Positions 31,523-39,538 of a stretch of 64,000 nucleotides of DNA are shown here, one piece after another (the first letter of the stretch is position 1; each line of letters starts with the position of its first letter). A program made the position numbers and the translations under genes. Source of the DNA: Paludibacteraceae bacterium (lineage in GTDB: Bacteria; Bacteroidota; Bacteroidia; Bacteroidales; Paludibacteraceae); the NCBI GenBank assembly GCA_016285885.1, contig JAEERP010000001.1:496001-560000 (forward strand). Reading direction: 5' to 3'. Under the pieces are notes generated by a model. It saw only the letters and a list, made by a program, of their open reading frames with translations, made no database searches and was not told where the DNA came from.

Positions 31523-32305
31523 ATGGCAAAGAAGATATCGATCATCACCACGTCGTATAACAGTGGCGAGACCATACGGGACACGTTGGAGAGCGTGTTG
31601 CGACAGACCTTCCGGGACTACGAGCTGATCGTCAAGGATGGAGGTTCGACAGACGACACCCTCGCCATCTGCCGGGAGTACGAGCCTCGCTTCGGCGGTA
31701 GACTCACCATCGTCTCCGAACCCGACAAGGGCATCTACGACGCCATGAACACGGGCCTCGCCATCGCAACGGGCGACATCATCGGCATCCTCAACTCAGA
31801 CGACTACTACACCGCGGACAACGTCCTCCAAATGGTCGCCGACACCATGCGCGACCCTATGCTCGACGCAGTCTATGGCGACGTGCACTACGTGTCGCCC
31901 GAAAACCTCGAACGGTGCGTCCGATACTACTCCTCGAAGGTCTTCCGCCCTTCCCTGATGCGCTTCGGCTTCATGCCCGCGCACCCTTCCTTCTACTGCC
32001 GCAAAAGCGTCTACGACCGCTACGGCACCTTCGACAAGCGCTACCGCATCGCGGCAGACTTCGACCTGCTCCTCCGCTTCATCTACCTCGGTAAGATCAA
32101 GACCAAATACCTGCCCCTGGACTTCGTCACCATGCGCACGGGCGGCGTCTCCACCTCCGGCCTCCGCAGCCACCTCAAAGTGCTCAAGGAACACCACGCC
32201 TCCCTCAAACGCAACGGCGTCAAATCCAACTACTTCACCTCGGCGTGCAGGTTCCTGTACAAGCTGAAGGAGTTGAGGATTGGAAAATTAAGAATTAAGA
32301 ATTAA
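31523..32305 (+). CDS. Glycosyltransferase family 2 (WcaA/WcaE-like)
   Basis: KISIITTSYNSGETIRDTLESVLRQTFRDYELIVKDGGSTDDTLAICREYEPRFGGRLTIVSEPDKGIYDAMNTGLAIATGDIIGILNSDDYY. Confidence 0.95.
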   Translation: MAKKISIITTSYNSGETIRDTLESVLRQTFRDYELIVKDGGSTDDTLAICREYEPRFGGRLTIVSEPDKGIYDAMNTGLAIATGDIIGILNSDDYYTADNVLQMVADTMRDPMLDAVYGDVHYVSPENLERCVRYYSSKVFRPSLMRFGFMPAHPSFYCRKSVYDRYGTFDKRYRIAADFDLLLRFIYLGKIKTKYLPLDFVTMRTGGVSTSGLRSHLKVLKEHHASLKRNGVKSNYFTSACRFLYKLKELRIGKLRIKN

Positions 32306-32361
32306 GAAACGATAGTTCGACGAAGTCAATTAAGAATTGTCAGTCCGACGTAGTCAATTTT
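32283..32361 (+). repeat. Interspersed intergenic AATTC/CGTCAGTTCGACGAAGTC element (two cores)
   Basis: 'attaagaattaagaattaagaaacgatagttcgacgaagtcaattaagaattgtcagtccgacgtagtcaatttt'. Confidence 0.8.
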
Positions 32362-32631
32362 GGGAATGCGTATCCCCACATGATGCGCACAATCCTGCTC
32401 TGAAAGAGCGCAACATATATAGCCTAGGGCAACGCCCTAGGGGAATTAAGAATTTTGAATTATGAATTTTGAAACGTCAGTTCGACGAAGTCAATTAAGA
32501 AAGCCTGGATAGGAGGCGATGAGCTAATTAACCCAACGGAAAAAGCAGCGAACGATCACATTTCGCTGCTTTTTTCTTATCCCGTTGGAGGATCACCAAG
32601 AAAATCATTATCTTTGCGAGAAAGGTAGCAA
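32362..32631 (+). repeat. ~270-bp direct repeat, copy 1 (CCTAGGG hairpin + AATTC/CGTCAGTTCGACGAAGTC motif + terminator + promoter), upstream of MNT/HEPN
   Basis: Near-identical to 33423-33688: 'gggaatgcgtatccccacatgatgcgcacaa...gcctagggcaacgccctaggggaattaag...aaagcagcgaacgatcacatttcgctgcttttttcttatccc.ttgga...tatctttgcgagaaaggtagca'. Confidence 0.95.
32540..32576 (+). terminator. Rho-independent terminator-like hairpin (copy 1)
   Basis: AAAAAGCAGCGAA-cgatcacat-TTCGCTGCTTTTTT. Confidence 0.8.
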
Positions 32632-32636
32632 AATTA

Positions 32637-32960
32637 GTGTCAGCTATGAGAAGGCCAGAAATTGTGGAACGGATAAGGAAAGAAGCGGTAAAGTTACTGC
32701 CGAAGGTGCAAACGATCCTGTACGGGTCGGAAGCGAGGGGTGACGCGCGCCAGGATTCCGACATCGATCTGTTACTGCTGGTCGATGCCGACAAATTGTC
32801 ATACGACGACAAAGACCACATCATCGCACCATTTTATGACATTGAGTTGGAAACAGGTGTCAACATAAGCGCATTGGTCCTTCTACGCAAGGATTGGGAA
32901 AACCGACCTTTCATGACACCATTCCAATGCAATGTGAACAGGGAGGGGATAGTACTATGA
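32637..32960 (+). CDS. MNT-type nucleotidyltransferase (antitoxin of MNT/HEPN module)
   Basis: VQTILYGSEARGDARQDSDIDLLLLVD (GSxARGDxxxxSDID). Start may be the ATG at 32646. Confidence 0.93.
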   Translation: MSAMRRPEIVERIRKEAVKLLPKVQTILYGSEARGDARQDSDIDLLLLVDADKLSYDDKDHIIAPFYDIELETGVNISALVLLRKDWENRPFMTPFQCNVNREGIVL

Positions 32961-33373
32961 TTCAACAAATGTCAGACGAAAACATTGATGCCCTTGTGCA
33001 TTACAGATTGGAAAGAGCGCACCAAACACTTGCGGAGATTCCATTCCTGCGTGAACAAGGATACTATAACACAGCAACCAACCGATTGTATTATGCGTGT
33101 TACTACGCAGTTGTTGCCTTGCTAACAAAAAATCACATACCGACAGACACCCACGCTGGCGTTAAGACAATGCTGGGGTTGCATTTCGTTTCGAAAGGCC
33201 TAATATCAAAAGAAAGCGGCAGAGCATTCACCAATTTGTTCGATTGTCGTCAGCACAGTGACTATGACGAATTTGTATATTCGACAGAAGAGGAAGTTGA
33301 CGAACTTTACGAGAAAGCTCAGAGACTCATCGAAGAAGTCGACACGCTACTGCATACATCTTCAACAGACTGA
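32957..33373 (+). CDS. HEPN domain protein (toxin of MNT/HEPN module)
   Basis: ALVHYRLERAHQTLAEIPFLREQGYYNTATNRLYYACYYAVVALLTKNHIPTDTHAGVKTMLGLHFV ... FDCRQHSDYDEF. ATGA overlap with MNT stop supports start 32957 rather than 32894. Confidence 0.93.
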   Translation: MIQQMSDENIDALVHYRLERAHQTLAEIPFLREQGYYNTATNRLYYACYYAVVALLTKNHIPTDTHAGVKTMLGLHFVSKGLISKESGRAFTNLFDCRQHSDYDEFVYSTEEEVDELYEKAQRLIEEVDTLLHTSSTD

Positions 33374-33422
33374 AAAGATCAGTTAATAACCAAAGAAACG
33401 TCAGTTCAACCTAGTCAATTAA

Positions 33423-33688
33423 GGGAATGCGTATCCCCACATGATGCGCACAACCCAGCTCTGAAAGAGCGCAACACATATAGCCTAGGGCAACGCCCTA
33501 GGGGAATTAAGAATTTTGAATTATGAATTTTGAAACGTCAGTTCGACGAAGTCAATTAAGAAAGCCTGGATAGGAGGCGATGAGCTAATTAACCAAACGC
33601 AAAAAGCAGCGAACGATCACATTTCGCTGCTTTTTTCTTATCCCATTGGATCACCAAGAAAATCATTATCTTTGCGAGAAAGGTAGCA
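33423..33688 (+). repeat. ~266-bp direct repeat, copy 2, upstream of the DUF3791 module
   Basis: Near-identical to 32362-32631, with a few substitutions and a ~3-4-nt indel between terminator and promoter. Confidence 0.95.
33600..33637 (+). terminator. Rho-independent terminator-like hairpin (copy 2)
   Basis: AAAAAGCAGCGAA-cgatcacat-TTCGCTGCTTTTTT. Confidence 0.8.
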
Positions 33689-33706
33689 TAACCCCCAAAT
33701 ATAAAC

Positions 33707-33979
33707 ATGCGCATTATGAACCCGAAAGACAAATATGAGTATTGCCCCTCAGAAGACGAAAAAATCGCCATTTTTGTCGCCTCATGTGTCGAGTCTGTGG
33801 CAAAAGCCTTAGATGTCGCCCCGGGGACCATGTATCAACGTATGGCGAGAATAGGATTAATCAAGGATTATATCATTCCGTGCTACAATGTATTGCACAC
33901 CGAAAGTCGCCAACATGTGACGGAAGACCTGATTAAGACCATCGAGATTTGGGAAAAGAAACAAGGAGTAGCCATATGA
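33707..33979 (+). CDS. DUF3791-like protein
   Basis: MNPKDKYEYCPSEDEKIAIFVASCVESVAKALDVAPGTMYQRMARIGLIKDYIIPCYNVLHTESRQHVTEDLIKTIEIWE. Confidence 0.8.
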   Translation: MRIMNPKDKYEYCPSEDEKIAIFVASCVESVAKALDVAPGTMYQRMARIGLIKDYIIPCYNVLHTESRQHVTEDLIKTIEIWEKKQGVAI

Positions 33980-34086
33980 TAGAAGTTTACCATGGAGGTG
34001 TGGAAAAACACTCACCGAATAATCAAATATGCATCCTGAACCAAGAGGTGATAGACCAATGTCTGACATTTAAAAACATCTTATGA
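33976..34086 (+). pseudogene. DUF3990-like protein with large internal in-frame deletion
   Basis: Translates MIEVYHGGVEKHSPNNQICILNQEVIDQCLTFKNIL*. The N-terminal 'YHG' start and C-terminal 'NNQICILNQEVIDQCL.F' ends of DUF3990-type proteins are fused. ATGA-overlaps the DUF3791 gene. Confidence 0.6.
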
Positions 34087-34563: not shown

Positions 34564-35580
34564 ATGAAAATCTTAGTGACAGGTTCGGCGGGATTCATAG
34601 GGTACCACCTGACGAAACGTTTGCTGGAAGAGGGCCACGAGGTGGTCGGCCTGGATAACCTGAATGAATACTACTCCGTATCGCTGAAACGAGCGAGATT
34701 GGCCGAATCTGGGGTGGTGGACCCGATGCTACCGTATGGCGTCCACATCTGCAGCGAGACAAAACCCAACTATAAGTTCGTCCGCATGGACCTCCAGGAT
34801 AGGCAGCAACTGCCGAAACTATTCGTCCAGCACCACTTCGACTGCGTCGTCAACCTGGCCGCCCAATGCGGTGTGCGTTACTCCACCGAGAACCCGTTCG
34901 CCTACATCGAGAGCAACCTGCTCGGTTTCGCCAACCTGCTCGAATGCTGCCGCCACAACAACGTGAGACACCTCGTCTACGCCTCCTCCTCCAGCGTCTA
35001 CGGCGGCAACGCCAAGACCCCTTTCACGGAAGAGGATAGGGTGGACACCCCGGTCAGCCTCTATGCCGCCACGAAAAAGGCGGACGAGCTCATGGCCAGC
35101 TGCTACAGCAAACTATATAACCTCGCCTGCACGGGCCTCCGCTTCTTCACAGTATACGGTCCGTGGGGCCGCCCCGACATGGCTCCCATGCTCTTCGCCG
35201 ACGCCATCCGCAGCGGCAAGGAAATCAAAGTGTTCAACCACGGCGACATGCTCCGCGACTTCACCTACGTCGACGACATCGTGGAGGGTATCACCCGCGT
35301 CATGGGCAAGACACCGAAGCCCCAGGAGGACGGCAGACCGCATAAGATCTATAACCTCGGCTGCTCCAACCCAATCCGCCTCATGGACTTCATCCAGACC
35401 ATGGAGAGCATCTTCGGCAAGGAAGCCAAGAAGGTCTTCCTCCCTATGCAACCAGGCGACGTCTACCAAACCTACGCAGACACTTCCGCCCTGGAACGTG
35501 ACTTCGACTATAAACCGTCCACCGAACTCAAAACCGGTCTGGAAAAATTGGTGGAATGGTACAACGCATACTACAAGTGA
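34564..35580 (+). CDS. UDP-glucuronate 4-epimerase-like NAD-dependent epimerase (CapI type)
   Basis: MKILVTGSAGFIGYHLTKRLLEEGHEVVGLDNLNEYYSVSLKRARL; YASSSSVYGGNAKTPFTEEDRVDTPVSLYAATKKADELMA; FTVYGPWGRPDMA. Confidence 0.93.
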   Translation: MKILVTGSAGFIGYHLTKRLLEEGHEVVGLDNLNEYYSVSLKRARLAESGVVDPMLPYGVHICSETKPNYKFVRMDLQDRQQLPKLFVQHHFDCVVNLAAQCGVRYSTENPFAYIESNLLGFANLLECCRHNNVRHLVYASSSSVYGGNAKTPFTEEDRVDTPVSLYAATKKADELMASCYSKLYNLACTGLRFFTVYGPWGRPDMAPMLFADAIRSGKEIKVFNHGDMLRDFTYVDDIVEGITRVMGKTPKPQEDGRPHKIYNLGCSNPIRLMDFIQTMESIFGKEAKKVFLPMQPGDVYQTYADTSALERDFDYKPSTELKTGLEKLVEWYNAYYK

Positions 35581-36595: not shown

Positions 36596-37456
36596 ATGAT
36601 TAAAAGGATTTTAAAACATATTCTGAATCCTACGATGATTCGTGGGGCGAAAAGAGGTTTGCGCCGTCTGCGGAATAAACTGAAGCATGCGGATAAGACG
36701 ACATTGAAGGATTTCAAACGCGCACTCACGGCAGACCTTGGGCTCAAAAGGGGCGACCGCATCTTCGTGACCTCAGGCTTCGCCAACCTCAACGCGGAGG
36801 ACTACTCTCCGGAGGACCTCCTCCTCTCCCTCATGGAGATCGTGGGTCCAGAAGGATTGATCATGATGCCCTATTACCCGCCCGTATCCTCGATGGATTG
36901 GGTCAAAAGCGGAGAGGTGTTCGATATGCGCACCACGAAATCGGGCATGGGTATCCTCACCAATGTCTTCGCACATATGTCGGGCGTCGTGATGAGCGAA
37001 CACCCCACTAAGGCGGTCTGCGTGTGGGGAAAGGATGCGGAGTGGTTCGCTTCGCGCCACTACTTGTCGGTCGACCCCTATGGAGAAGACACACCATACG
37101 GAAGACTGCTCGAAAAGGGTTCCAAGTCGCTCTCGCTCGGGGTAATCAACCTGCCGATGTTCCATGCGATAGAGGATCTCTACCAAGATCCCAAGACCCT
37201 CTACTACAGCGAGCAAATCTACGACGTGCCGCTCAGAACGCTTCAGGGAAAGCTGATTTCCTGCCACACGATGGTGCATGATCCACTCCTTTCCGAGGGG
37301 ACCATGATGGGAGGCGAATTCGTGAAACGGTTCTCCGAACCGATCCGAAAGGTAGTCCGCTTCGGCTACGACCATCTCTATTTAATCGACAACACCCTGC
37401 TGAAAGAGGCGGCCATCAAGGAGTTCGCCGCAGGGAATACACGAAGGAAAAAGTAA
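36596..37456 (+). CDS. AAC(3)-family N-acetyltransferase-like protein
   Basis: DRIFVTSGFANLNAEDYSPEDLLLSLMEIVGPEGLIMMPYYP; SVDPYGEDTPYGRLLEKGSKSLSLGVINLPMFHAIED. Confidence 0.75.
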   Translation: MIKRILKHILNPTMIRGAKRGLRRLRNKLKHADKTTLKDFKRALTADLGLKRGDRIFVTSGFANLNAEDYSPEDLLLSLMEIVGPEGLIMMPYYPPVSSMDWVKSGEVFDMRTTKSGMGILTNVFAHMSGVVMSEHPTKAVCVWGKDAEWFASRHYLSVDPYGEDTPYGRLLEKGSKSLSLGVINLPMFHAIEDLYQDPKTLYYSEQIYDVPLRTLQGKLISCHTMVHDPLLSEGTMMGGEFVKRFSEPIRKVVRFGYDHLYLIDNTLLKEAAIKEFAAGNTRRKK

Positions 37457-38545: not shown

Positions 38546-38974
38546 ATGGTTAACGCAATCTTCTTCTATCGCATCGCGAGATGGTTCTATCTGCACCATA
38601 TACCGCTTATACCGAAGCTGATCACTTTGCTTATCTTTCTGATATACAACAGCAAAGTATCCTATAAATGTGAGATCGGCGCAGGCACGAAGCTAGGCTA
38701 CGGAGGCATCGGCGTCGTGATCCACCAGAACGCGAAAATCGGGCGGAACGTCTCCATCGCACAACAGGTGACCATCGGCGGAGGTAACAGCCATTACCCG
38801 GGCGTGCCTACCATCGGCGACAACGTCCATATCCACAAGGGCGCCATCGTATTCGGAGGCATCACCGTGGGCAATAATGCGGAGATCGGGGCGAACGCTG
38901 TGGTGAATAAGCCTGTGCCGGAGAACGCTGTGGTCGTGGGGGTGCCGGGAAAGGTGATACGAATTAAGAGTTAA
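38546..38974 (+). CDS. Serine O-acetyltransferase-like (CysE/LbH) protein
   Basis: EIGAGTKLGYGGIGVVIHQNAKIGRNVSIAQQVTIGGGNSHYPGVPTIGDNVHIHKGAIVFGGITVGNNAEIGANAVV. Confidence 0.88.
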   Translation: MVNAIFFYRIARWFYLHHIPLIPKLITLLIFLIYNSKVSYKCEIGAGTKLGYGGIGVVIHQNAKIGRNVSIAQQVTIGGGNSHYPGVPTIGDNVHIHKGAIVFGGITVGNNAEIGANAVVNKPVPENAVVVGVPGKVIRIKS

Positions 38975-39042
38975 GAATTAAGAAACGATAGTTCGGCGTA
39001 GTCAATTTTGAATTTTGAAACGTCAGTTCGACGAAGTCTATT
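38968..39042 (+). repeat. Interspersed intergenic AATTC/CGTCAGTTCGACGAAGTC element (two cores)
   Basis: 'agttaagaattaagaaacgatagttcggcgtagtcaattttgaattttgaaacgtcagttcgacgaagtctatta'. Confidence 0.8.
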
Positions 39043-39538
39043 AGAAGCGATAGGTAGCCCAGAGACCAAAGGATTTGATGCCGATAACGGGAGACCATGT
39101 GCGATCTATGTATTCTTGAACGCCAAAGATACCTGCGTCGGCGGTGATGTCCCAATGCTCGGAGAGGCGGAAACGGAGGGCCGGTATGAGTCCATGCTGC
39201 GCCATGAGGAATTTATTCTCTTCCCCTGAAGGAAGCCAAGCCCATGCTGAATTTAGCCTTAAATCCAGAAAGAAGAAATCATTGTGATAGGGGGTGAAAC
39301 GGACAAACGGCTCCGCGATCATAAATATATTCACCACTTCCGAGTTATATCCGACTCCCAATCCGGTGCCAACTGCGATGAAATCATTGAATTCCAAGCC
39401 CACAGTGGGTTCAACTGAGGCAGAAAAATAATCGGTGTAGGTAATCGCTCCCGTAAAACCTAAATCAAAGTGCTTCTCCGCTATGACTGAAAAGTGGCAA
39501 GCGACCATCACTATCAACAGAATACTTAATTTCCTCAT
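39041..39538 (-). CDS. Hypothetical outer-membrane beta-barrel-like protein
   Basis: Signal peptide MRKLSILLIVMVACHFSVIAEK; alternating aromatic strands; terminal ...SFGLWATYRF. Confidence 0.6.
   Translation of the reverse strand: MRKLSILLIVMVACHFSVIAEKHFDLGFTGAITYTDYFSASVEPTVGLEFNDFIAVGTGLGVGYNSEVVNIFMIAEPFVRFTPYHNDFFFLDLRLNSAWAWLPSGEENKFLMAQHGLIPALRFRLSEHWDITADAGIFGVQEYIDRTWSPVIGIKSFGLWATYRF

What the first reader, a model, noticed from the sequence alone, without database searches (positions are those of the whole stretch)
32362..33979. Duplicated ~268-bp terminator-promoter segment, each copy placed directly in front of a different TA-like module
Copies 32362-32631 and 33423-33688 are nearly identical. 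Each holds a CCTAGGG-CAACG-CCCTAGG hairpin, the AATTC/GACGAAGTC motif, a Rho-independent terminator and a TTG...TATCTTTG promoter. Identity ends at the promoter/leader ('gaaaggtagca'), just before MNT/HEPN in copy 1 and before DUF3791 in copy 2. This looks like a modular cassette header: it insulates from upstream transcription and supplies a promoter to whatever cargo follows. Direct repeats flanking MNT/HEPN would also allow precise excision by homologous recombination.
Basis: partly seen in the sequence, partly recalled or inferred. Interest (0 to 1): 0.78.

Follow-up and report, generated by a model that had tools for sequence, protein, structure and literature searches.

The report
Duplicated scar between toxin-antitoxin genes
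The repeated 'header' in front of two toxin-antitoxin modules is real, but it looks like leftover DNA from deleted genes (repeats, an old gene's terminator, a neighbour's promoter) that was duplicated and now serves as a stretch where related rumen bacteria exchange such modules, not a purpose-built cassette part.

Summary
The repeat is confirmed: 32332-32630 and 33393-33688, 94.6% identical over 299 aligned positions, 1061 bp apart. The host is a ruminant-gut Bacteroidales MAG whose genus mates are deposited as Paludibacteraceae. It is not a widespread cassette header. The left half is two dispersed intergenic repeats (34 and 82 sites in this genome). The right half (32503-32640) occurs only twice here and is confined to a few species of the genus. 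Its parts can be read from relatives. Bases 32499-32522 are the 3' tail of a small Rpn-family (PDDEXK_2) ORF. The terminator is the bidirectional terminator that elsewhere sits 15-25 bp from the stop codon of a convergent rpn gene; that stop codon survives at 32593-32595. The promoter is the one DUF3791 carries in a relative that still has rpn. So the header is a deletion scar: rpn was lost, fusing its terminator to DUF3791's promoter. The fused segment is now present twice, with MNT/HEPN between. The two fusion junctions occur in all four combinations across species, and MNT is 99-100% identical between species with less similar flanks, so exchange with breakpoints in the header is well supported. 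Precise excision was not seen. The downstream DUF3990 toxin gene is truncated here.

The parts
31523..32305 (+). GT2 glycosyltransferase, left boundary of the variable slot
   Evidence: Pfam PF00535 E 1.8e-29; same left boundary in L046, L048, L049, L050, L053; cut to a 300-bp piece in L047
32332..32630 (+). Header copy 1 (A), whole repeat
32362..32443 (+). Dispersed intergenic repeat 1 with CCTAGGG/CCCTAGG hairpin (32423-32441)
   Evidence: 34 merged sites in the genome, 33 intergenic against 9.7% expected; 92-bp tandem array on C45
32440..32503 (+). Dispersed AATTAAG/GACGAAGTC repeat, identical in the two copies
   Evidence: 82 merged sites, 77 intergenic
32499..32522 (+). Remnant 3' tail of a small Rpn C-terminus-like ORF (ends ...ESLDRRR*; longer in L047, whole 70 aa in L049/L050/L053)
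32533..32588 (.). Bidirectional intrinsic terminator, copy 1 (core stem 32540-32574, outer stem 32533-32539/32582-32588)
   Evidence: fold -26.8 kcal/mol, z -6.9; matches rpn 3'-end terminators
32593..32595 (-). Relic of the rpn stop codon (TGA on the minus strand); deletion junction to the DUF3791-type promoter follows
   Evidence: alignment with L048, L049, L050, L053 and L052
32585..32631 (+). Promoter and leader copy 1: TTG - 21 nt - TATCTTTG - GAAAGGTAGCA
   Evidence: sequence; Bacteroidetes-type -7 element from own knowledge
32646..32960 (+). MNT nucleotidyltransferase, putative antitoxin (GSx10DxD)
   Evidence: PF01909 37.3 bits; PADLOC PDC-S09 E 1e-18
32957..33373 (+). HEPN-domain protein, putative toxin
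   Evidence: PF05168 65.8 bits
33393..33688 (+). Header copy 2 (B), whole repeat
33560..33583 (+). Same Rpn-like ORF tail in copy 2
33601..33635 (.). Terminator core, copy 2
   Evidence: fold -16.4 kcal/mol, z -5.4
33646..33689 (+). Promoter and leader copy 2: TTG - 18 nt - TATCTTTG
   Evidence: native to DUF3791 in L052
33707..33979 (+). DUF3791 protein, candidate antitoxin-like partner
   Evidence: PF12668 58 bits; PADLOC PDC-M13A
33976..34086 (+). DUF3990 remnant (36 codons left of 158; in-frame internal deletion shared with L052)
   Evidence: intact homologue L046:7107-7583, PF13151 153 bits
34088..34300 (+). Second DUF3791-like small protein
   Evidence: PF12668 17.1 bits, below cut-off
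34564..35580 (+). NAD-dependent epimerase, right boundary of the slot
   Evidence: PF01370; found right of the slot in L046, L048, L049, L052, L190

Best explanation
The 'header' is a composite scar, not an evolved cassette part. In the ancestral arrangement, still seen in related species, a small Rpn-like ORF and a convergent rpn (PDDEXK_2) gene share one bidirectional terminator, and DUF3791 with its own promoter follows. Deletion of rpn from its last codon to the DUF3791 promoter fused terminator to promoter; dispersed intergenic repeats replaced the body of the small ORF. The fused segment became duplicated with MNT/HEPN between the copies, most simply by homologous recombination between alleles through the header or the repeats (inferred). 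It now works incidentally as a terminator plus promoter for each module (inferred from sequence) and as a homology stretch through which TA modules are exchanged between species (supported by mosaic identity and junction combinations).
For: Terminator-promoter half unique to these two copies in the genome; left half is dispersed repeats. In the relatives and in own contig C24 the same terminator lies at the 3' end of an rpn coding region ending ...EIDNL* or ...EIEDL*, within about 25 bp (L048, L049, L050 twice, L051, L053, C24; also L054 by coordinates). The header keeps TGATCC, the rpn stop and 3' flank, then switches to ACCAAGAAA(T/A)TCATTATCTTTG, which in L052 precedes DUF3791 without terminator and next to an rpn upstream region. 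The tail GAAAGCCTG(G/A)A.AGGA.G(C/T)(G/A)ATGA matches the end of the 70-aa PDDEXK_2-like ORF. Junction 1 (repeat|tail) and junction 2 (terminator|promoter): L048 +/-, L047 -/+, window and L046 +/+, L049/L050/L053 -/-. MNT segment 99-100% against L046 and L047 while the adjacent GT is 65-93% per 60-bp window against L046.
Against: All genomes are metagenome assemblies, and the G001 and G008 slots are split over two contigs whose adjacency is inferred. Terminator and promoter function is from sequence only. The exact route of the MNT/HEPN duplication is not resolved, and junction 1 could have arisen twice through the shared GAAA.
Confidence: 0.8

Rival explanations
1. Modular cassette header: a selected insulator-promoter unit that accepts different TA cargo.
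For: Two copies in front of two different modules, with terminator and promoter intact in both; cargo between the same flanks differs between species.
Against: Only two copies in the genome; confined to a few species; parts are relics of named neighbouring genes; in L048, L049, L050 and L053 the terminator serves rpn, not a header; other MNT homologues lack it.
Confidence: 0.1
2. The direct repeats are the site of active precise excision of MNT/HEPN, a small recombination-mobile element.
For: 117 bp exact homology between the copies; copy 2 shares one promoter base with copy 1 against the DUF3791 promoters of L046 and L052, as after gene conversion.
Against: No header-DUF3791 allele without MNT/HEPN in 16 genus genomes; the one loss seen (L046) is an imprecise deletion from the end of MNT into the copy-2 terminator. 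Copies A and B (95%) differ more than A does from the L046 copy (99%), so the arrangement is not a recent toggle.
Confidence: 0.07
3. The header is the end structure of a transposable element, for example an rpn-encoded transposase or a REP/RAYT system, that carried MNT/HEPN in.
For: rpn-like genes and three Y1_Tnp genes are present; the left half contains a palindromic dispersed repeat.
Against: No inverted terminal repeats bracket MNT/HEPN; the right half is not dispersed; the Rpn paper reports that rpn genes lack such ends (PMC10327210).
Confidence: 0.03

Closest known systems
Rpn (PD-(D/E)XK) genes-within-genes toxin-antitoxin (PMC10327210, PMC5350276)
   Same: The terminator and gene tail in the header derive from an rpn locus; L050 rpn matches NCBIfam TIGR01784 (82 bits, cut-off 52.1) and has 4-residue repeats like those described for RpnS.
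   Different: The window itself has lost the gene; only 3' remnants are left.
HEPN/MNT type VII toxin-antitoxin (MntA-HepT; PMC7641770, PMC11586414)
   Same: Adjacent, overlapping MNT and HEPN genes; GSx10DxD in MNT.
   Different: MNT scores 30.5 bits against the NCBIfam MntA cut-off of 60; the HEPN is Pfam PF05168 type with R..SDY in place of a C-terminal RX4-6H.
PADLOC candidate defence system PDC-M13 (DUF3791/DUF3990)
   Same: DUF3791 and, in L046, intact DUF3990 match PDC-M13A and M13B.
   Different: DUF3990 is truncated in the window.
Chromosomal TA/defence hotspots with exchange through flanking homology
   Same: Same boundary genes (GT2 and epimerase), different TA or defence cargo in different species.
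   Different: Sits inside a polysaccharide locus; the homology includes a relic terminator between modules as well as the flanks.

Membership tests
HEPN/MNT (type VII) toxin-antitoxin | Adjacent MNT nucleotidyltransferase and HEPN genes | tested here: met
   PF01909 and PF05168 above cut-off, ORFs overlap by 4 nt
HEPN/MNT (type VII) toxin-antitoxin | GSx10Dx[DE] motif in MNT | tested here: met
   GSEARGDARQDSDID in the translation
HEPN/MNT (type VII) toxin-antitoxin | RX4-6H RNase motif at the usual C-terminal place of HEPN | tested here: inconclusive
   RQHSDYD at that place; the only RX4H seen in the protein is N-terminal (RLERAH)
HEPN/MNT (type VII) toxin-antitoxin | Curated MntA model | tested here: not met
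   30.5 bits against cut-off 60
HEPN/MNT (type VII) toxin-antitoxin | Toxicity and neutralisation | not testable with these tools
   needs expression assays
DUF3791/DUF3990 (PDC-M13) module | Intact DUF3990 | tested here: not met
   36 of 158 codons remain in the window; intact in L046
Modular cassette header | Same unit in front of many unrelated genes | tested here: not met
   two copies in the genome; 301 family genomes
Transposable element with defined ends | Terminal inverted repeats around MNT/HEPN | tested here: not met
   no such arms; the flanking repeats are direct and mosaic
rpn 3'-end terminator | Same terminator adjacent to the rpn stop codon in relatives | tested here: met
   L048, L049, L050 twice, L051, L053 and own C24

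The most novel reading that the evidence does not exclude
A relic intergenic unit (rpn terminator fused to a TA promoter) has become a shared recombination joint: TA modules inserted behind it are expressed at once, insulated from upstream transcription, and exchanged between rumen species by homologous recombination within about 100-280 bp, so that a scar behaves as a cassette site without any recombinase.
Probability: 0.3. Interest if true: 0.5.

Novelty: new member of a known kind. Interest (0 to 1): 0.32.

Why it matters
It shows step by step, from living relatives, how an apparently designed 'insulator plus promoter' unit can arise by deletion and duplication, and how small TA/defence modules turn over at one chromosomal slot of gut Bacteroidales by exchange through short non-coding homology.

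Tried and rejected
Metagenome-wide scan for the terminator motif found only the window's own contig; viral contigs none. Rfam gave only tRNAs, so the hairpin repeat is not a catalogued RNA. The simple terminator scan missed the terminator, probably because its 9-nt loop exceeds the tool's 8; folding was used instead. MNT homologues elsewhere (L057-L077) were checked for the header and lack it. A search for local intergenic repeat pairs showed that this genome has about 20 others of 120 bp or more within 6 kb, many of them tandem arrays or near Y1_Tnp genes, so a duplicated intergenic stretch as such is not exceptional here. Paper searches gave no description of DUF3791/DUF3990 modules or of these repeats.

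Full report
Observation. Two direct copies exist, 32332-32630 and 33393-33688, 94.6% identical over 299 columns, 1061 bp apart, with a longest exact block of 117 bp. Copy 2 has a 3-nt deletion that shortens the TTG-TATCTTTG spacer from 21 to 18 and spoils the outer terminator stem. The copies differ at about 15 positions, and an independent MAG (G009) has the same order header-MNT-(header)-DUF3791, so this is unlikely to be an assembly artefact.

Host. The motif scan matched JAEEGH010000295.1, 904,710 bp, the same length as window contig C13. Two genus relatives with the same MNT are Paludibacteraceae MAGs from yak rumen and omasum. The slot lies between a GT2 glycosyltransferase and an epimerase in a polysaccharide biosynthesis region.

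Anatomy. The left half of the header is made of two dispersed repeats: a hairpin repeat (34 merged sites, 33 intergenic) and an AATTAAG/GACGAAGTC repeat (82 merged sites, 77 intergenic), against 9.7% intergenic for random positions. The right half, 32503-32640, has only two copies in the genome. In the genus, 7 of 16 genomes have a match to it, counting the window's own genome; in 301 family genomes four more have only weak partial matches.

Where the right half comes from. In G004 (L049), G013 (L050) and G001 (L053) a 70-aa ORF that matches the C-terminal part of PDDEXK_2 (positions 162-218, 19.0 bits, below the cut-off of 27.4) runs into the same terminator, and an rpn gene (PDDEXK_2 124 bits; NCBIfam TIGR01784) converges on it from the other side. 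In every non-header instance examined (L048, L049, L050 twice, L051, L053 and own contig C24) the sequence after the terminator, read backwards, encodes the rpn C-terminus ending in EIDNL* or EIEDL*. The header retains the 3' end of the small ORF (GAAAGCCTGGATAGGAGGCGATGA), the terminator, and the rpn stop codon with its 3' flank (TGATCCTCC on the minus strand). It then switches within the last rpn codon to ACCAAGAAAATCATTATCTTTGCGAGAAAGGTAGCA. In G001 (L052) this promoter and leader run straight into DUF3791 without a terminator, and the start of that contig is an rpn upstream region: its first 55 bases are identical to the sequence just upstream of rpn in G008 (L190). The simplest reading is that deletion of rpn fused its terminator to the DUF3791 promoter.

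Recombination. Junction 1 is the repeat fused to the ORF tail; junction 2 is the terminator fused to the promoter. G005 has 1 but not 2; G008 has 2 but not 1; the window (both copies) and G009 copy 1 have both; G004, G013 and G001 have neither. All four combinations exist within about 100 bp, which needs recombination in the header or the same join arising twice. The identity profile agrees: against G009 the glycosyltransferase is 65-93% identical per 60-bp window, and from about 32480 through MNT it is 97-100%; against G008 MNT/HEPN is 97-100% and identity ends 11 bp after the HEPN stop. The order of events (rpn deletion, repeat replacement, duplication with MNT/HEPN, exchange between species) is inference; the junctions and identities are shown.

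Function. Terminator structure is strong in both copies, and on both strands of copy 1, and the TATCTTTG element fits a Bacteroidetes -7 box (own knowledge), so each module very likely has its own promoter behind a terminator. It is not a generic header: other MNT homologues have unrelated upstream DNA.

Excision. No allele with one header and DUF3791 alone was found. The only loss seen, in G009, is an imprecise deletion from the end of MNT into the copy-2 terminator, removing HEPN. Homologous excision remains possible but unobserved.

Modules. MNT/HEPN is Pfam-supported but below NCBIfam's MntA cut-off, and the HEPN lacks RX4-6H at the usual place. MNT resembles PADLOC PDC-S09, and DUF3791/DUF3990 resembles PDC-M13. 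DUF3990 in the window is cut to 36 codons by a deletion shared with G001 and is intact in G009. Across the slot, cargo includes rpn, MNT/HEPN, DUF3791/DUF3990, a DUF6364 RHH antitoxin-like gene (L047) and SocA/Panacea antitoxin genes (L047, L190).

Verdict. A real duplication with a mostly ordinary origin. It is informative about how TA/defence slots turn over, but it is not a new kind of element.

Noticed in passing
33976-34086; L046:6700-6750; L048:6837-7625(-); L051:6115-6501(-); G000 C24:32261-32770(-): In unrelated TA families at this slot or at rpn sites the toxin part is lost and the antitoxin part kept: DUF3990 truncated between two DUF3791 genes, HEPN deleted behind MNT in G009, rpn nuclease domain lost while the RpnS-like C-terminus remains. 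This fits addiction logic; events were not counted on a tree.
   Followed up: partly
L050:7400-7741, L048:6837-7166, L053:6774-7103: Extra tandem copies of exactly the RpnS-like C-terminal ORF (start MEFIDPS) next to rpn or an rpn remnant, as the Rpn paper mentions for some homologues (PMC10327210).
   Followed up: partly
L047:5063-5930: In G008 a lone SocA/Panacea antitoxin gene adjoins a 300-bp piece of the glycosyltransferase; a second Panacea gene with a 150-aa partner lies at L190:675-1696.
   Followed up: partly
G000 C45:15160-15959: Tandem array of about eight 92-bp units that combine the hairpin repeat and the AATTAAG repeat.
   Followed up: no
G000 C7:396043-396384, C42:57777-58115, C24:79865-80206: Three Y1_Tnp (IS200/RAYT-type) genes, all with palindrome-rich duplicated intergenic sequence close by; a possible source of the dispersed hairpin repeats.
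   Followed up: no
36596-37456: Antibiotic_NAT-family (PF02522) gene inside the polysaccharide locus, more likely a sugar N-acetyltransferase than a resistance gene.
   Followed up: no
38958-39053: Another copy of the AATTAAG/GACGAAGTC repeat.
   Followed up: no
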